6,750 bases of DNA, taken from Nitrospirota bacterium. Its GTDB lineage: Bacteria; Nitrospirota_A; Leptospirillia; Leptospirillales; Leptospirillaceae. Positions 1 through 6,480 of this stretch are shown piece after piece. The notes under the pieces were generated by a model. It was not told the origin of the DNA. It ran no database searches and saw nothing but the letters and a program-made list of their open reading frames with translations. The stretch lies in the NCBI GenBank assembly GCA_021844645.1, contig JAKBTA010000072.1, positions 1-6,750 of the forward strand, in the 5' to 3' direction. Numbering within the stretch: the stretch's first letter is position 1; every line of letters starts with the position of its first letter. Position numbers and translations under genes: made by a program.

Positions 1-424
1 GATACCGGTCTTTCCGCTCGTTGCCGGAGTGGGAACAGGCGGCACCATCAGCGGTGTCGGCCGATTTCTCCGGGAGAAAAAAAGAGATCTCAAAATATGG
101 GCACTTGAACCATCGTCTTCGCCCGTCCTTTCCGGGGGGGCTCCGGGGCCTCACCGGATACAGGGAATTGGTGCGGGTTTCGAGCCCAGGACCTTTAATC
201 GTTCAGTGGTCGACAGGGTCGAGCAGATTTCCGATCGTGAAGCGATAGACATGACCCGGCGTCTTTCGCAGGAAGAGGGGTTGATGGCAGGCATTACGTC
301 AGGAGCAAATGTTGTCGGAGCCCTCCGGTTAGCTCGGGAGTTGCCTTCGGGGTCACACGTTGTGACAATTGTCTGTGATAGCTTTGAACGTTATTTTTCA
401 ATGGAAAGATACTTGAACCTCTGA
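1..424 (+). CDS. cysK: Cysteine synthase (CysK-type, PLP-dependent), C-terminal part, 5' end outside window
   Basis: The frame is open from base 2 to a TGA at 422-424, giving about 140 C-terminal residues of a protein normally near 300-310. The visible part has the fold-type II PLP phosphate loop GVGTGGTISGVG (bases 26-61), the CysK-type stretch EPSSSPVLSGG...GPHRIQGIGAGF, and the GITSGANVVGAL segment. The N-terminal half with the PLP lysine and substrate loop lies outside the window. The family joins O-acetylserine and sulfide to make cysteine in the cytoplasm. The IQGIGAGF signature argues for CysK over the O-phosphoserine-using, CysO-dependent CysM of mycobacteria. The usual C-terminal DSGERYLS is altered to DSFERYFS, followed by the unusual ending MERYLNL. 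It lies 62 bases upstream of an E1-like gene on the same strand, so it may supply the PLP step of a sulfur-carrier pathway; that role is inferred. Confidence 0.9.
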   Translation, partial: IPVFPLVAGVGTGGTISGVGRFLREKKRDLKIWALEPSSSPVLSGGAPGPHRIQGIGAGFEPRTFNRSVVDRVEQISDREAIDMTRRLSQEEGLMAGITSGANVVGALRLARELPSGSHVVTIVCDSFERYFSMERYLNL

Positions 425-486: not shown

Positions 487-1293
487 ATGGAAATGACAGA
501 AGATCAGATACACCGCTATTCGCGCCACATATTGCTATCCGAGGTGGGCGGGAGCGGCCAGGTAAAGCTTTTGAACTCACGAGTGCTGATTGTTGGGGCT
601 GGAGGGCTCGGCAGTCCTGTAGCCCTCTATCTTGCTGCAGCCGGGGTGGGGCATATAGGGATTGTCGATATGGATGTGGTCGACCTTTCGAACCTTCAAC
701 GCCAGGTCATTCACCACTCGAAAGATGTTGGAAGGGCCAAAGTCCTTTCTGCTTCCGAAAAGATGACCGGACTCAACCCTGATGTCGAAGTAAAGACATA
801 TCAGGTGCTGCTCAATGCAGAAAATGCACGGGAGATCGCTGCTCCCTATGATGTTATCGTGGATGGAACGGATAATTTTTCTGCCAAGTTTTTGATAAAT
901 GATTTGGCTGTTCTCACTGGAAAGCCTCTTGTCCATGGGGGGATCCTCAGGTTTTCTGGCCAGGTGATGACGATTATTCCCGGAAACAGTGCCTGCTATC
1001 GTTGTATTTTCAGGGAACCACCTCCAGCCGGTGCTATTCCGACCTGCTCTGAGGCGGGTGTCCTCGGTGTTATTGCCGGAGTTGTCGGATCGATTCAGGC
1101 TACTGAGGTTCTCAAGTTCCTTCTTGGAAAAGGGGAGCTTTTGACGAACCATCTTCTAACTTATGATGCCTTGACTGTTCTTATTCGAAAAGTGGGTGTC
1201 CGGAAAAACCCCCGTTGTCCCGTTTGCGGTGACAATCCAACCATTACGGAGCTTCACGATTATGAGCAACCCGTCTGTGCCAATCCACTCTGA
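487..1293 (+). CDS. MoeB/ThiF/HesA-family E1-like sulfur-carrier adenylyltransferase, copy 1
   Basis: This 268-residue protein belongs to the E1-like enzymes that adenylate the C-terminal Gly-Gly of small sulfur carriers so that a thiocarboxylate can form. Visible elements are the N-terminal arginines of RYSRH (10 and 13), the nucleotide loop GAGGLG (37-42), the acidic DMD (61-63), SNLQRQ with Arg72, Lys85, and DGTDN (126-130). The zinc cysteines are Cys170/Cys173 and Cys244/Cys247, and the likely transfer cysteine is Cys187 in PTCSEAG. Length matches single-domain MoeB; there is no rhodanese domain as in MoeZ, so the sulfur must come from elsewhere. The ATG at 487 is chosen because GAGGA (475-479) lies seven bases upstream; the next ATG at 493 is spaced less well. 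Its 3' end overlaps the ThrC-like gene by 32 bases. A close paralogue lies at 3175. MoeB and ThiF cannot be told apart from sequence alone, so no symbol is given. Confidence 0.93.
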   Translation: MEMTEDQIHRYSRHILLSEVGGSGQVKLLNSRVLIVGAGGLGSPVALYLAAAGVGHIGIVDMDVVDLSNLQRQVIHHSKDVGRAKVLSASEKMTGLNPDVEVKTYQVLLNAENAREIAAPYDVIVDGTDNFSAKFLINDLAVLTGKPLVHGGILRFSGQVMTIIPGNSACYRCIFREPPPAGAIPTCSEAGVLGVIAGVVGSIQATEVLKFLLGKGELLTNHLLTYDALTVLIRKVGVRKNPRCPVCGDNPTITELHDYEQPVCANPL

Positions 1294-2539
1294 CTCTTCT
1301 GCCCACTCAGGCGTGAAAGCGCTCAAGTGCCGCGAGTGCGGCAGAAGGTATGAGCTTTTAGCGATCCATGTATGTGAATTTTGTTTTGGCCCTCTGGAAG
1401 TCGAGTACGATTATGAGGTTATCGGCAGAAAGATCTCTCGCCAGTCCATAGAGGCTGGTCCCGTTTCGCTTTGGCGATACAAGGACCTTCTTCCTGTTCT
1501 CGGTGAGCCTACGGCCGGACTTCATGCAGGGATGACCCCGCTTGTTCGGGCAGAACGTCTTGGCAAGGCACTCGGCCTTAAAAATCTTTATGTTAAAAAT
1601 GACACGGTCAATCATCCAACGCTGTCTTTCAAGGACCGGGTTGTAGCGGTCGCAACAACAAGGGCGCGGGAGCTTGGATTTACGACAATCGCTTGTGCTT
1701 CGACAGGCAATCTTGCGAACTCCGTTTCAGCCCATGCTGCCAGTTGCGGTATGGAGTGTTTTGTTTTTATTCCCCATGATCTGGAAGCGGGCAAGGTTCT
1801 TGGAAACCTGATCTACAAACCGACGGTTGTTTCCGTCAAGGGAACCTATGATGATGTGAACCGGCTTTGCAGTGAAATCGGAGCAGAGTATCCATGGGCC
1901 TTTGTGAATATCAACATTCGTCCATACTATGCCGAAGGCTCCAAGTCGTTGGCGTTCGAGACTGCCGAACAGCTGGGGTGGAAGGTTCCTGATCAAGTTG
2001 TTGTACCGATTGCGTCAGGTTCTCTTTTGACCAAGATATGGAAGGGATTCCACGAGTTTACCCGTCTTGGGCTTGTGGCGGAAAACCCTCTGTTGAAAGT
2101 CAATGGAGCACAGGCATCCGGGTGTTCTCCGGTTTATCAGGCGTATGTTTCCGGAAAGAACCATATCGTTCCTGTTCGTCCGAACACGATTGCCAAGTCA
2201 TTGGCGATCGGGAATCCTGCCGATGGCTTCTATGCCCTTGATGTCGTCGGGAAGTCTGGTGGAAAGGTCGAAGAGGCGACTGATCCCGAGATTATTGAAG
2301 GCATGAAGCTTCTTGCCGAGACAGAGGGCATCTTTGCTGAAACCGCTGGCGGGGTAACTGTGGCCTGCCTTAAGAAACTGGCTCAGAAAGGGGCGATCCG
2401 TCCTGATGACCTGACTGTTGCATATATTACTGGAAATGGTTTGAAGACAATGGAAGCTTTGGCCGGTTCTCTTTCCCAGCCGGTCAGCATTGACCCAAAC
2501 CTGTCTTCCTTTAGACAAATTGTAAACCCGAAATCCTAG
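1262..2539 (+). CDS. thrC: Threonine synthase-like PLP enzyme with N-terminal zinc ribbon
   Basis: This 425-residue protein matches the plant/archaeal-style threonine synthase class, which converts O-phosphohomoserine to threonine with PLP. Cys23, Cys26, Cys38 and Cys41 form an N-terminal zinc ribbon. MTPL (91-94) opens the catalytic core, SFKDR (122-126) carries the expected PLP lysine Lys124, and ASTGN (146-150) is the substrate loop. PNTIAKSL (308-315) and ITGNGLK (389-395) are family-like. Several loops differ from the ThrC consensus I remember: STGNLANS, PIASGSLLTKI at the phosphate-loop position (249-258), and AETAGGVT near 359-366. Start: an upstream GTG at 1196 is open, but ATG 1262 has GGAG (1248-1251) ten bases upstream and places the zinc ribbon normally. 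It overlaps the preceding gene by 32 bases, and its stop lies inside the ribosome site of the carrier gene. It may be an ordinary threonine synthase or a specialised sulfur-pathway paralogue. Confidence 0.87.
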   Translation: MSNPSVPIHSDSSAHSGVKALKCRECGRRYELLAIHVCEFCFGPLEVEYDYEVIGRKISRQSIEAGPVSLWRYKDLLPVLGEPTAGLHAGMTPLVRAERLGKALGLKNLYVKNDTVNHPTLSFKDRVVAVATTRARELGFTTIACASTGNLANSVSAHAASCGMECFVFIPHDLEAGKVLGNLIYKPTVVSVKGTYDDVNRLCSEIGAEYPWAFVNINIRPYYAEGSKSLAFETAEQLGWKVPDQVVVPIASGSLLTKIWKGFHEFTRLGLVAENPLLKVNGAQASGCSPVYQAYVSGKNHIVPVRPNTIAKSLAIGNPADGFYALDVVGKSGGKVEEATDPEIIEGMKLLAETEGIFAETAGGVTVACLKKLAQKGAIRPDDLTVAYITGNGLKTMEALAGSLSQPVSIDPNLSSFRQIVNPKS

Positions 2540-2547: not shown

Positions 2548-2826
2548 ATGTCTGTGCTGGTTCGTATTCCAACTCCATTGAGGCCTCTTGCAGGTGGACA
2601 ATCCGAACTTTCGGAAGAAGGAACATCTGTCAGGGAGATTCTGGACAATTTGATCAGAAGGTTTCCGGCAATGAAGGAAAGAATGATGGATGAGTCCGGG
2701 GAACTGAGGCGATTTATCAATATCTATGTTAATGAAGAGGACATCCGGTTCAGGGAAGGGGTATCAACGCCACTTTCTTCCGGTGATGAAGTATCCATTA
2801 TTCCGGCGATTGCCGGGGGGGCTTAG
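2548..2826 (+). CDS. CysO/MoaD/ThiS-family sulfur-carrier protein with C-terminal Gly-Gly-Ala
   Basis: This 92-residue protein has the beta-grasp (ubiquitin-like) carrier pattern: an N-terminal strand SVLVRIPTPLRPLAGG, a helix around 28-48, RFINIYVNEEDIRF (55-68), and GDEVSIIPAIAGG (79-91). From memory it closely resembles mycobacterial CysO, which carries sulfur as a C-terminal thiocarboxylate for cysteine synthesis. In the active form the terminal Gly is adenylated by an E1-like enzyme and then sulfurated. Here the reading frame does not stop at Gly90-Gly91 but adds Ala92 before TAG. A protease must therefore remove one residue before activation, as known for HcyS-Ala of Wolinella; the JAMM gene downstream is the obvious candidate. 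The Gly-Gly codons form most of a seven-G run (2815-2821). The gene lies between the ThrC-like and NIL genes. A plain MoaD role in molybdopterin synthesis is less likely, since no moaE or other moa gene is nearby. Confidence 0.92.
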   Translation: MSVLVRIPTPLRPLAGGQSELSEEGTSVREILDNLIRRFPAMKERMMDESGELRRFINIYVNEEDIRFREGVSTPLSSGDEVSIIPAIAGGA

Positions 2827-2830
2827 AACG

Positions 2831-3073
2831 ATGGCTCAGCTCAGAATTCACCTGACTTTTCCTGAGGACCGTGTCCGGGATCCGATCATTTATGAGATTT
2901 CGAAAAACTTTCAGGTCGTTCCAAATATTCGGAGAGCGGATGTTTCGGATAAAACCGGTTGGATGGAGCTTGAACTGGTCGGAGATCTTTCTGAGATCGA
3001 ATCTACGATCGATTGGCTCAGGAAAAAAGGAGTCCATGTCGATCCTCTTGAGAAAAGTATTCTTGAGGGATAG
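2831..3073 (+). CDS. Stand-alone NIL-domain protein
   Basis: This 80-residue protein is almost entirely one NIL domain. Typical features are LRIHLTFPEDRVRDPIIYE (4-22), VVPNIRRADVS (29-39), GWMELELVGD (43-52), and IDWLRKKGVHVDPLE (60-74). NIL domains occur at the C-terminus of the methionine ABC-transporter ATPase MetN, where they bind methionine, and fused to ferredoxins implicated in homocysteine synthesis in methanogens. A single-domain form here could sense a sulfur amino acid or assist sulfur transfer; neither is shown by the sequence. There is no cysteine in the protein, so it cannot itself carry a persulfide. The start is ATG 2831, four bases after the carrier stop, with only the G-run (2815-2821) as a possible ribosome site. 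This suggests translational coupling. A longer upstream reading frame from 2726 overlaps the carrier gene and is not favoured. Confidence 0.88.
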   Translation: MAQLRIHLTFPEDRVRDPIIYEISKNFQVVPNIRRADVSDKTGWMELELVGDLSEIESTIDWLRKKGVHVDPLEKSILEG

Positions 3074-4019: not shown

Positions 4020-4448
4020 TTGACAAATGAGCCATCCACGCCTGTTTTCTTTTCAAGGGCACTCTATCAGTCAATTGTAGATCATGCTCGTTCGGTCCAT
4101 CCGGAGGAGTGCTGCGGTCTTGTTGCAGCAGATCAAAAAGGCAGTCCGGTTCGTGTTATTCCCATGACAAACATTCTTCATTCTCCTGTCAGGTATCAGA
4201 TGGATCCCAAGGAGCAGTTTTCTGTCGGAAAGGCAATAAGACTCGAGGGGATGTCTCTATGGGGGATTTACCATTCTCACCCACTCTCAGAAGCATACCC
4301 GTCTGTTGTAGATATCAATCTGGCCTATTACCCGGATCTTTTTTATCTTCTTGCCTCTCCTGTGACGACACCTCCAGCTTTAAGAATCTTCCGGATCCAG
4401 AATGGCAAAGTATCGGAATTTCCTCTCATCTTGAAGGAGGGTGACTGA
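4020..4448 (+). CDS. JAMM/MPN+ (Mec-type, M67) zinc metallopeptidase
   Basis: This 142-residue protein is a single JAMM domain. The catalytic Glu30 lies in HPEECCG, and the zinc motif is His85-Ser-His87-Pro with Ser95 and Asp98, i.e. HxH-x7-S-x2-D. All key residues are present. Mycobacterial Mec cleaves the cysteine-carrier bond of CysO-cysteine, and Wolinella HcyD both removes the terminal alanine of its carrier and releases homocysteine. By analogy this enzyme could trim Ala92 from the carrier at 2548 and free the finished amino acid; this is inferred. The start is a TTG at 4020, with AAGG (4009-4012) seven bases upstream. The first in-frame ATG is at residue 50, beyond the catalytic Glu, and ATG 4027 is out of frame. 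A TTG start may limit its translation. Its TGA stop overlaps the ATG of the response-regulator gene. Confidence 0.92.
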   Translation: MTNEPSTPVFFSRALYQSIVDHARSVHPEECCGLVAADQKGSPVRVIPMTNILHSPVRYQMDPKEQFSVGKAIRLEGMSLWGIYHSHPLSEAYPSVVDINLAYYPDLFYLLASPVTTPPALRIFRIQNGKVSEFPLILKEGD

Positions 4449-5152
4449 TGAGTCGTCGGATTCTACTGATTGAGGATGAAGCGGATATTCGGACATTGGT
4501 TCGCCACTATCTTGTCCAGGAGCATTATGAGGTTCTGGAGGCATCCAATGGAACCGATGGCCTTGCTGCCATCAAGTCCCAGTTGCCGGATTTGATCGTT
4601 CTGGATCTGATGCTTCCCGGGGTCGACGGTCTTTCCTTAAACAGAATGCTGAAAAAGGATCCGAGGACAAACCAGATTCCCGTTATTATCCTGACAGCGA
4701 AGGCTGATGAAACGGATCGGATCATTGGTCTTGAACTGGGTGCGGACGACTATTTGGTGAAACCGTTCAATCCGAAAGAGCTCCTTGCCAGAATTCGTGC
4801 CATTTTGAGACGAGTTCATCTGGAGCCCCAAAGCAAGACGGACGATATTATTCGCATAGGCAATATTTCAGTGAATGAATCGCGTCATGAGGCTGTTGCC
4901 GAAGGGGTAACGATGCCATTGACGGCAAAAGAGTTCTCCCTTCTTAAGACACTGATGAAAAATGCCGGTCGCGTCCTTGATCGCGCCACTCTCCTCGATC
5001 TGGTCTGGGGGGATGATTATGAGGGAACAGACCGGACCGTTGATGTTCATATCAGAAGACTGAGAAAAAAAATGGGCGTTTTCCAGGACAAGATACAGAC
5101 TGTAAAGCAGATTGGGTACAAATTTTCGGATGATCCAGACGGGATCGACTGA
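4448..5152 (+). CDS. phoB: OmpR/PhoB-family response regulator (PhoB-like)
   Basis: This 234-residue two-domain regulator has a receiver domain (about 1-120) with acidic residues Glu9-Asp10, phospho-acceptor Asp53 in VLDLMLPG, Thr83 and Lys105 (VKPF). A winged-helix DNA-binding domain (about 133-230) has PLTAKEFSLL (157-166), a recognition helix around RTVDVHIRRLRKKMG (196-210), and the wing TVKQIGYKF. Phosphorylation by a partner kinase would let it dimerise and bind promoter DNA. The sequence is PhoB-like and it is paired with a PhoR-like kinase, so phosphate response is the best guess, but no phosphate-transport gene is in the window. The start is well supported: AAGGAGG (4434-4440) lies seven bases upstream. 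The ATG overlaps the JAMM stop (TGATG), so it is probably translated from the same message as the sulfur genes. Confidence 0.9.
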   Translation: MSRRILLIEDEADIRTLVRHYLVQEHYEVLEASNGTDGLAAIKSQLPDLIVLDLMLPGVDGLSLNRMLKKDPRTNQIPVIILTAKADETDRIIGLELGADDYLVKPFNPKELLARIRAILRRVHLEPQSKTDDIIRIGNISVNESRHEAVAEGVTMPLTAKEFSLLKTLMKNAGRVLDRATLLDLVWGDDYEGTDRTVDVHIRRLRKKMGVFQDKIQTVKQIGYKFSDDPDGID

Positions 5153-5154
5153 AA

Positions 5155-6480
5155 ATGACCTTCCGCGGGGTTATTGCGACCCTGTTCCTTGTTATTTTTT
5201 CTGCTGGCTGGTTTTTCTCGAGACTCAGGGGAACCTTAGAGCGATCACTCTTAATCCTTTTTTTATTGATCTTCCTTTATCTCCTGATCACATATATTTC
5301 CCGTCAGGTTCGTCGTCAGATCCAGATATCATTTGATGCTCCCCAAAGAATGCAGGAAAATACCTGGTTTGATGACCTTCTGGATGAAATTTATCTGAAT
5401 GTGAGTCGTGCGCATTCCGAAAAGTTGCAGAGAGAATCTGAAGTGAAGGAACTTGCTGCCCGTTCTGATGCGGTTCTTGACCATATGGTCGAAGGTGTTG
5501 CGGTTACTGATATAAAAGGTCACATTCTGCTTCATAACAAGTCGTTTTGTCGTTTCTTTCCGGATGAACCCAGAATTATTGGAGAGCCTCTTGGTTTGCT
5601 GGCTAAAAAAGCCGGTATTGATGACCTGATCGAAGAGGTTCTGTCCGGAAACAATCCGGTTCATACAGAGGTGACCTATTCTGGTGGCCTTTCAAAGACA
5701 TGGAGTCTTCTTGGAATCAGGACGCTCGGAGACTCTGGCCCCAAATCGGGGTACGGGATATTTCTGTTTTATGATCTGACTGAAATACGACGTCTTGAAA
5801 GGGTCAGAAAAGATTTTGTGGCCAATGTTTCTCATGAAATCAGAACGCCATTGACTTCGATTTCGGGGTTCGCAGAAGCCTTGATGGATGGGGCTCTTGA
5901 GGATCCAAAGACGGCCAGAAGCTTTCTTGAGATTATTGTGAACCAGTCGCACCGGCTCAACTCAATTGTGACCGATCTTCTCCATCTGGCAACACTGGAG
6001 TCAGGGAAAGCCAGTTTGGTCATGAAGCCTGTTGATCTTTCATCTCAGGTAGCCAGTATTCTGGAAGCAATCCGGGAGATGGCAAGGGAAAAGGGAATCA
6101 GGCTTATCGTGGAGATCGACCCTCCAAATCTGGTGTATGAGACAGATGAGGGGAAAATGAATCTTGTCCTCTCCAATTTGCTGGATAATGCATTGAAGTA
6201 CACTCCGTCCGGAGGGACTGTCAGTGTTGGCGCCCAGATCTTTCAGGGACGTGTTGAAATCTCTGTCTCTGACTCGGGAGTCGGAATTCCAAAGGAAGAT
6301 CTTGGCCGGATTTTTGAAAGGTTCTACCGGGTTGATCGTGCGAGGTCCCGGGAGATGGGGGGGACAGGGCTGGGGCTTTCAATCGTGAAACATGTCCTTG
6401 AACTTTTGGGTGGAGGTATTCGTGTCAAGAGTACACCCGGAGAAGGATCTGTTTTTACTGTCTCGCTCCCTTTCAAATGA
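5155..6480 (+). CDS. phoR: PAS-containing membrane sensor histidine kinase (PhoR-like)
   Basis: This 441-residue kinase starts with two hydrophobic segments (about 5-22 and 31-48) separated by only about eight residues. It therefore has a membrane hairpin and essentially no periplasmic sensor domain, as in PhoR, which senses through transport partners. A linker and a PAS-like domain (about 101-213, with AVLDHMVEGVAVTD) follow. The HisKA domain has phospho-accepting His227 in SHEIRTPL. The ATPase domain has the N box NLLDNALKYT (341-350), G1 box DSGVGI (373-378), F box FERFYRVD (387-394) and G2 box GGTGLGL (402-408). All catalytic motifs are intact. It begins two bases after the phoB stop with no strong ribosome site, suggesting coupling. 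It should phosphorylate and dephosphorylate the adjacent PhoB-like regulator. Assignment to phosphate rather than another signal rests on architecture only. Confidence 0.9.
   Translation: MTFRGVIATLFLVIFSAGWFFSRLRGTLERSLLILFLLIFLYLLITYISRQVRRQIQISFDAPQRMQENTWFDDLLDEIYLNVSRAHSEKLQRESEVKELAARSDAVLDHMVEGVAVTDIKGHILLHNKSFCRFFPDEPRIIGEPLGLLAKKAGIDDLIEEVLSGNNPVHTEVTYSGGLSKTWSLLGIRTLGDSGPKSGYGIFLFYDLTEIRRLERVRKDFVANVSHEIRTPLTSISGFAEALMDGALEDPKTARSFLEIIVNQSHRLNSIVTDLLHLATLESGKASLVMKPVDLSSQVASILEAIREMAREKGIRLIVEIDPPNLVYETDEGKMNLVLSNLLDNALKYTPSGGTVSVGAQIFQGRVEISVSDSGVGIPKEDLGRIFERFYRVDRARSREMGGTGLGLSIVKHVLELLGGGIRVKSTPGEGSVFTVSLPFK

What the first reader, a model, noticed from the sequence alone, without database searches (positions are those of the whole stretch)
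2548..2826. Sulfur carrier made as an inactive Gly-Gly-Ala precursor
The CysO-like carrier ends GGA rather than the free GG that E1-like enzymes need. In Wolinella succinogenes, HcyS-Ala has the same single extra alanine, which the JAMM protease HcyD removes before activation. A JAMM gene with all catalytic residues lies in this operon. This predicts a two-job protease (maturation and product release) and combines a CysO-like carrier body with an HcyS-like tail. Ala92 is seen directly; the processing is inferred.
Basis: partly seen in the sequence, partly recalled or inferred. Interest (0 to 1): 0.75.

Follow-up and report, generated by a model that had tools for sequence, protein, structure and literature searches.

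The report
Sulfur carrier made with removable cap
A bacterium of the Leptospirillum family makes a small sulfur-carrying protein with one extra amino acid on its working end, which a protease encoded in the same operon probably clips off; relatives carry extra ends of every length, some as large as a whole second protein.

Summary
In detail: ORF 2548-2826 encodes a CysO/SAMP1-like carrier ending ...PAIAGGA, with a motif-complete JAMM protease in the same operon. Three congeners also end GGA, so the G-run there is no sequencing error.

The reading is partly right. Alanine is not a special link to HcyS: capped carriers are the rule in this family (113 of 120 nearest homologues; 79 of 96 Nitrospirota genera), and caps vary freely in length and sequence. 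In a large family the "cap" is a whole NIL domain, and 120 of 120 best such fusions keep GG at the junction. In relatives a second carrier beside cysK is capped too (36 of 37), five times by CysK itself. Many caps come from gene overlap, and where the NIL start is near, the Gly-Gly codons look like its ribosome-binding site.

JAMM presence: 124 of 125 capped/fused Nitrospirota genomes against 58 of 62 others (p = 0.04, not corrected for kinship). Six of 64 capped/fused genomes in a second set show no JAMM.

JAMM uncapping of carriers is already in print (QbsE, PtmS2/3, CsUb, MoaD-MoaE; HcyS recalled), so this is a variant of a known kind. Processing itself is untested. The operon context in relatives (metK, ahcY, NIL, a second ThrC) hints at homocysteine.

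The parts
2..424 (+). cysK, 3' part only (cysteine synthase A type; the window starts inside it)
   Evidence: PALP 93.1 bits; best NCBIfam TIGR01139 cysK on the fragment. The full copy of G003 passes the cysK cut-off (372.9 vs 350.95) and not those of CysM
487..1293 (+). E1-like adenylyltransferase, first copy (no rhodanese domain found)
   Evidence: ThiF 288.8 bits
1262..2539 (+). threonine-synthase-like PLP enzyme with a CxxC...CxxC N-terminus, immediately upstream of the carrier
   Evidence: TIGR00260 293.3 bits, cut-off 167.1; a second full-length ThrC lies elsewhere in 4 of 4 family genomes of 95% completeness or more
2548..2826 (+). CysO/SAMP1-like sulfur carrier, 92 aa, ...PAIAGGA
2815..2820 (+). 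Gly90-Gly91, the predicted cleavage site lies after it; the G-run 2815-2821 may also act as a weak ribosome-binding site for NIL
   Evidence: sequence; GGA in three congeners
2821..2823 (+). Ala92, the one-residue cap
   Evidence: sequence
2831..3073 (+). NIL-domain protein, 80 aa; start codon 10 nt after the Gly-Gly codons
   Evidence: PF09383 59.5 bits; distance 10 for the identical locus L001
3175..4005 (+). E1-like adenylyltransferase, second copy
   Evidence: ThiF 273.1 bits
4020..4448 (+). JAMM/MPN+ metalloprotease, TTG start; E30 4107-4109, H85 4272-4274, H87 4278-4280, S95 4302-4304, D98 4311-4313
   Evidence: Prok-JAB 75.7 bits; motif invariant in 21 homologues; model pLDDT 90.4, nearest folds 2kks, P. 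furiosus JAMM1 and its SAMP2 complex, C. subterraneum Rpn11 homologue
4448..5152 (+). PhoB-like response regulator, downstream neighbour, probably not part of the system
5155..6480 (+). PhoR/PnpS-like sensor kinase, downstream neighbour

Best explanation
The carrier is translated as an inactive capped precursor (GG-Ala). The JAMM protease of the same operon cuts after Gly91 and frees the GG carboxylate; an E1 of the operon adenylates it, it becomes a thiocarboxylate and hands sulfur to a PLP enzyme of the operon (the ThrC-like protein or CysK), and the JAMM probably also releases the amino-acid product from the carrier. The cap carries little information: its length and sequence follow from where the reading frame meets a stop codon near the start of the downstream gene, and a protease that cuts behind GG regardless of what follows makes any cap, even a fused NIL domain, tolerable. 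Shown: the cap, its prevalence and variability, the fusions, the intact JAMM motif and the gene order. Inferred: cleavage, activation, sulfur transfer, product.
For: Cap in 3 of 3 congeners. Capped: 28 of 30 relatives, 113 of 120 nearest proteins, 66 of 80 named loci, 125 of 187 Nitrospirota genomes and 79 of 96 genera by majority; 91 distinct short caps. Carrier-NIL fusions: 120 of 120 best keep GG at the junction with 80-92 residues behind it, Ala following in 68; in the model of one (L063) the only internal stretch under pLDDT 50 is residues 88-91, I-A-G-G. Fusions confirmed by Pfam in single loci: NIL (L240, L063), E1 (L067), rhodanese-E1 (L260), CysK (L106, L112). A second carrier next to cysK is capped or fused in 36 of 37 loci. 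JAMM found in 182 of 187 carrier-bearing and 1 of 8 carrier-lacking Nitrospirota genomes, p = 3e-9. Experiments on relatives in print: loss of JAMM ptmS1 abolishes product formation with capped carriers (section 7 of PMC6006322); CsRpn11 cuts its ubiquitin precursor exactly after GG (passages of PMC6043591); DRJAMM cuts MoaD-MoaE (passages of PMC8832034).
Against: The direct cap/JAMM association is weak: 124 of 125 against 58 of 62, p = 0.042, genomes counted one by one without correction for kinship. Exception: G181 (cap RGWS) has no JAMM hit. Of 78 genomes behind the named loci, 6 of 64 with capped or fused carriers (L045, L046, L067, L070, L073, L110) and 3 of 14 with bare GG (L050, L071, L104) show no JAMM; their completeness is not told. 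L050's genome lacks a JAMM hit though its second carrier is capped (ANTHVC). Bare-GG genomes nearly always have JAMM too, so JAMM cannot be there for uncapping alone. No call shows cleavage.
Confidence: 0.77

Rival explanations
1. The JAMM acts only on the product (a Mec-like release of an amino acid from the carrier); the cap is trimmed by an unrelated peptidase or lost otherwise.
For: Most genomes with bare-GG carriers keep a JAMM (58 of 62 untailed Nitrospirota genomes); M. tuberculosis CysO ends at GG and its Mec+ releases cysteine (passages of PMC3227635). Six capped or fused genomes show no JAMM.
Against: Fusions to whole folded domains need an endoprotease cutting at GG. In Streptomyces the JAMM gene is needed for product formation with capped carriers, although that knockout alone does not separate uncapping from release.
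Confidence: 0.12
2. The system is mainly a protein modifier (SAMP-like conjugation), with the JAMM as precursor processor and deconjugase; sulfur transfer is secondary.
For: The carrier passes the NCBIfam SAMP1 cut-off (65.1 vs 60); the model's near folds include P. furiosus JAMM1 and its SAMP2 complex.
Against: The JAMM is far below the desampylase cut-off (69.2 vs 130); the neighbours are CysK, ThrC-like and NIL, with metK and ahcY in relatives. No E2-like gene was recognised in the window, where only the nine main ORFs were scanned.
Confidence: 0.08
3. The alanine is an artefact of a miscounted G in the homopolymer.
For: The GG codons sit in a run of seven G.
Against: GGA with the same seven G in three separate congeneric genomes; one base more or less would read on into NIL in another frame.
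Confidence: 0.01

Closest known systems
HcyS-Ala / HcyD of Wolinella succinogenes (recalled; Krishnamoorthy and Begley 2011, seen only as reference 34 in PMC5764234; not held)
   Same: One Ala after GG; JAMM gene nearby; sulfur amino acid genes nearby
   Different: Not compared by sequence here. The window carrier resembles CysO/SAMP1; Ala is not conserved in its family; the neighbours are ThrC-like, NIL and CysK, and MetY was not seen in the window
Capped carriers PtmS2 (MV) and PtmS3 (C) with JAMM PtmS1, and QbsE/QbsD (PMC6006322 section 7 read; QbsE recalled)
   Same: One or two residues after GG; JAMM needed for product formation (PtmS1)
   Different: Natural-product thiocarboxylic acids in those systems; here amino-acid-type neighbours
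CysO-CysM-Mec+ of M. tuberculosis (passages of PMC3227635)
   Same: Carrier body (3dwg_C, E 4.8e-23), E1, cysteine-synthase family enzyme, JAMM
   Different: CysO ends at bare GG; CysM uses O-phosphoserine, while here the enzyme is of CysK type; two E1 copies, ThrC-like and NIL here
CsUb precursor / CsRpn11 and SAMP precursors / CsJAMM of Caldiarchaeum (passages of PMC6043591)
   Same: Ubiquitin-like precursor with residues after GG, cut by a JAMM precisely there
   Different: A conjugation system
MoaD-MoaE fusions cut by DRJAMM (passages of PMC8832034) and MoaD fusions surveyed in Archaea (passages of PMC11237513)
   Same: Carrier fused to a pathway partner and cut at the carrier end
   Different: Partner is MoaE or MoeB there; here NIL, CysK or E1. 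The passages seen of PMC11237513 mention no NIL fusion

Membership tests
ThiS/MoaD-type sulfur carrier (CysO/SAMP1 branch) | beta-grasp ThiS domain with conserved GG | tested here: met
   PF02597 66.3 bits, SAMP1 65.1 vs 60; GG at 90-91
ThiS/MoaD-type sulfur carrier (CysO/SAMP1 branch) | GG becomes a thiocarboxylate | not testable with these tools
   needs biochemistry
Capped carrier plus JAMM (QbsE/PtmS2/HcyS kind) | residue(s) after GG | tested here: met
   Ala92; three congeners
Capped carrier plus JAMM (QbsE/PtmS2/HcyS kind) | JAMM with complete E...HSH...S..D motif in the operon | tested here: met
Capped carrier plus JAMM (QbsE/PtmS2/HcyS kind) | JAMM required: capped carriers absent where JAMM is absent | tested here: inconclusive
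   124/125 vs 58/62, p 0.042, with exceptions
Capped carrier plus JAMM (QbsE/PtmS2/HcyS kind) | JAMM cuts after GG | not testable with these tools
   needs purified proteins
HcyS methionine pathway | sequence relationship to HcyS/HcyD | not tested
   no HcyS or HcyD sequence was compared
HcyS methionine pathway | O-acetylhomoserine sulfhydrylase family gene | tested here: inconclusive
   one strong PF01053 protein per genome in 4 of 6 family genomes, in pieces in the other two, and not at the carrier's coordinates; MetY, MetZ or MetB not resolved
CysO-CysM cysteine pathway | CysM-type enzyme beside the carrier | tested here: not met
   the neighbour in G003 passes cysK (372.9 vs 350.95), is below both CysM models (274.9 vs 394.2; 284.8 vs 413)
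DUF39/NIL-ferredoxin homocysteine pathway | HcyBio (DUF39) protein | tested here: not met
   0 of 6 family genomes; 3 of 14 control genomes ring

The most novel reading that the evidence does not exclude
The cap is not a regulatory device but a by-product of gene packing that the JAMM makes harmless. The Gly-Gly codons (often GGA-GGn) serve as ribosome-binding site of the next gene, the reading frame runs on into or past that gene's start, and in thousands of related proteins the two genes have merged into a carrier-NIL polyprotein that must be cut at GG, like ubiquitin-ribosomal protein fusions. The operon runs two such capped carriers with two E1s and one JAMM, and the carrier beside the ThrC paralogue feeds sulfur to an O-phosphohomoserine-using enzyme that makes homocysteine.
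Probability: 0.25. Interest if true: 0.72.

Novelty: new variant of a known kind. Interest (0 to 1): 0.5.

Why it matters
If the reading holds, JAMM uncapping is not a rarity of siderophore or Wolinella pathways but the normal maturation step of CysO-like carriers across Nitrospirota and several other bacterial phyla, and the carrier-NIL and carrier-CysK fusions would be bacterial counterparts of ubiquitin polyproteins. It names testable partners for NIL-domain proteins and for a second threonine-synthase-like enzyme, both of unsettled function, in sulfur amino acid synthesis.

Tried and rejected
Sequencing error in the G-run: rejected by three congeners. Ala as HcyS signature: rejected, caps are not conserved. 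'Capped carriers occur only with JAMM': not upheld as a strict rule (G181, and six capped or fused genomes, plus L050's capped second carrier). G177, at first a second exception, has the end of a JAMM gene cut by the contig start. DUF39 route: no match in 6 family genomes. Ribosome-binding-site idea: supported across genera, but the middle class (starts 10-20 nt away) has only 25% GGA, and the window's own genus (GGGGGG, start 10 nt away) falls in that class, so for the window itself it is weak. Overlap count: one search printed 68 of 103, mixing two sets; the recount is 64 of 103 (starts within 20 nt) and 68 of 168 (any start found). The automatic tail of L260 was taken at a later GG and is wrong; the carrier there ends AVAGG and runs on into rhodanese and E1. 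L087 and L094 have 45-46-residue tails that match no domain and may be frame or contig artefacts. The first classification script stopped with an error and mislabelled CysK as ThrC; one search replaced it, and the label ThrC (E 1e-10) may still include other PLP enzymes.

Not done: no comparison with HcyS, HcyD or QbsE sequences; no complex model; no tree. The NIL start codons behind the distance classes are a mechanical choice (nearest in-frame ATG, GTG or TTG upstream of the domain).

Full report
What is there. The window holds, all on the + strand: the 3' part of cysK, an E1-like gene, a ThrC-like gene, the carrier, a NIL-domain gene, a second E1-like gene, a JAMM gene, and phoB-phoR-like genes. 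The carrier ends PAIAGGA. Its nearest held genome shares 91% of the window's words; relatives returned by name are Leptospirillum and 'Nitrospirae' MAGs. The body is CysO/SAMP1-like: 3dwg_C, E 4.8e-23, ending exactly at GG.

Is the extra residue real? The G-run is suspicious, but three congeners of 100, 96 and 93% identity have the same GGA end.

How common are caps? Of 30 relatives 28 are capped and 2 end at GG. Of the 120 nearest proteins, out of 8000 scored, 113 are capped, 6 end at GG and 1 reads AWGA. Of 80 named loci, the best of 524, 66 are capped (50 with 1-3 residues, 9 with 4-20, 7 longer) and 14 end at GG. Of 195 Nitrospirota genomes 187 have a carrier match; all 187 ends were read: 87 with 1-3 residues, 36 with 4-20, 2 fused to NIL, 60 bare GG, 2 without GG. 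By genus majority: 79 of 96 capped or fused, 16 bare, 1 without GG. There are 91 distinct short caps; first residues are mostly S, R, A, C and G. So the cap is neither alanine-specific nor conserved.

Fusions. Six loci, among them Nitrospirota (L240, L190), 'Deltaproteobacteria' (L044, L045), Desulfuromonadales (L063) and Omnitrophota (L086) by record title, run from the carrier through GG into a NIL domain in one frame; Pfam confirms both domains in L063 and L240, and no ATG lies between GG and the NIL domain in L240. A search with L063 gave 4913 proteins at E <= 0.001; this number includes proteins of other make-up. The best 120 all bear both Pfam domains and all keep GG at the junction, followed by 80-92 residues; Ala follows in 68, Ser in 21. 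They were found by likeness to a GG-bearing query, so conservation of GG is partly expected, but GG is among the invariant columns of a 49-row alignment while the residues straight behind it vary. The model of L063 has two confident domains, and the only internal stretch below pLDDT 50 is 88-91, I-A-G-G. Other fusions: carrier-E1 (L067), carrier-rhodanese-E1 (L260), carrier-CysK (L112; L115 by HMMER only).

The second carrier. In G003, G002 and G007 a 75-78 aa ThiS-family protein lies directly upstream of cysK and ends FFMGGGL, FFMGGGL and FFMGGGG; in five of six family genomes a ThiS match lies 3-5 kb upstream of the main carrier (in the sixth, G001, the contig ends about 2 kb beyond the carrier). 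Among loci at hand 37 distinct relatives of it were found: 27 with 1-3 residues after GGG, 4 with 4-20, 5 fused to CysK, 1 bare. The CysK part was confirmed by HMMER in all five and by Pfam in L106. Upstream of it in G003 are metK and ahcY; relatives of these lie near the carrier in 8 and 9 of 80 named loci, all in the first ten, the Leptospirillum family.

JAMM. Motif residues are invariant in 21 homologues. The model (pLDDT 90.4) is nearest to 2kks, P. furiosus JAMM1 and its SAMP2 complex, and C. subterraneum Rpn11 homologue. In the Nitrospirota set, five carrier-bearing genomes have no JAMM (no PF14464 match better than 1e-8, none with the JAMM alignment): G181 capped, G201 and G219 bare GG, G225 and G239 without GG. 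G177 has a JAMM cut by the contig start. That gives 124 of 125 capped/fused and 58 of 62 others with JAMM (one-sided Fisher p = 0.042), and JAMM in 182 of 187 carrier-bearing against 1 of 8 carrier-lacking genomes (p = 3e-9). Both tests ignore kinship, and carrier-lacking genomes may be lacking it through gaps. In the 78 genomes behind the named loci (one locus not held, two loci in one genome) no JAMM was found in 6 of 64 with capped or fused carriers and in 3 of 14 with bare GG, which does not support a strict dependence.

Why caps exist. Where the start of NIL could be placed within 20 nt of the GG codons, 64 of 103 capped carriers have their stop codon in or beyond that start. With the start 9 nt or less away, the first Gly codon is GGA in 73% (mean over 20 genera) against 36% over 68 other genera (permutation p = 0.001); E1-internal Gly-Gly, a control, gives 29% over 55 genera; NIL fusions 1 of 6. 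Against it: 25% for starts 10-20 nt away and 46% for farther ones, not a smooth trend. The usual spacing is 5 nt, in capped and bare carriers alike (86 loci, of which 47 bare): the frame decides the cap. The window (GGGGGG, 10 nt) is a poor example of this.

What pathway? The ThrC-like enzyme is a paralogue: two full-length ThrC matches in 4 of 4 family genomes of 95% completeness or more, one in G001 and G002 (80 and 72% complete). The NIL domain is linked in print with homocysteine synthesis only as NIL/ferredoxin with DUF39 (passages of PMC5764234); DUF39 is absent in 6 of 6 family genomes. metK-ahcY point to the methionine cycle, cysK to cysteine. I lean to homocysteine for the main carrier and cysteine for the second, as inference only.

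Literature. Capped carriers: section 7 of PMC6006322. Iyer et al. 2006 (passages of PMC1779556) describe ThiS/MoaD-E1-JAB-cysteine synthase operons and propose that JAB frees fused carriers; 'NIL' and 'threonine synthase' have no occurrence there. A search for NIL domain with sulfur carrier, MoaD, threonine synthase and homocysteine (10 papers listed) gave none holding both 'NIL domain' and 'MoaD' or 'sulfur carrier'; this covers only the held open-access library.

Noticed in passing
L370 (G003:C1:1764000-1774500), minus strand, about 3 kb upstream of the carrier; left of the window: A second capped ThiS-family carrier (FFMGGGL) between ahcY and cysK; capped or fused in 36 of 37 relatives at hand.
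   Followed up: partly
L376 567-851 (-), G003:C1:1689100-1690500: A third ThiS-family protein of G003 reads ...GFVGGGSLLFPTCL, eight residues after GGG; the MoaD-like one in L375 ends ...PPFGGG bare. Names by eye.
   Followed up: no
L106, L081, L091, L100, L109; L112, L115: Carrier-CysK fusions, in two carrier families.
   Followed up: partly
L343 (G239) and L344 (G225): Carrier relatives ending ...PAISEG and ...PAVSEG, without GG, in genomes with no JAMM found: perhaps carriers that changed function.
   Followed up: no
window 1262-2539; G003:C1:1136499-1137458: Two threonine-synthase-like genes per genome; the operon copy has an extra CxxC...CxxC N-terminus.
   Followed up: partly
PDB 1v8c_A: A solved 'MoaD related protein' matches the carrier up to GG at residue 87 of 168, so it too carries a domain behind GG.
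   Followed up: no
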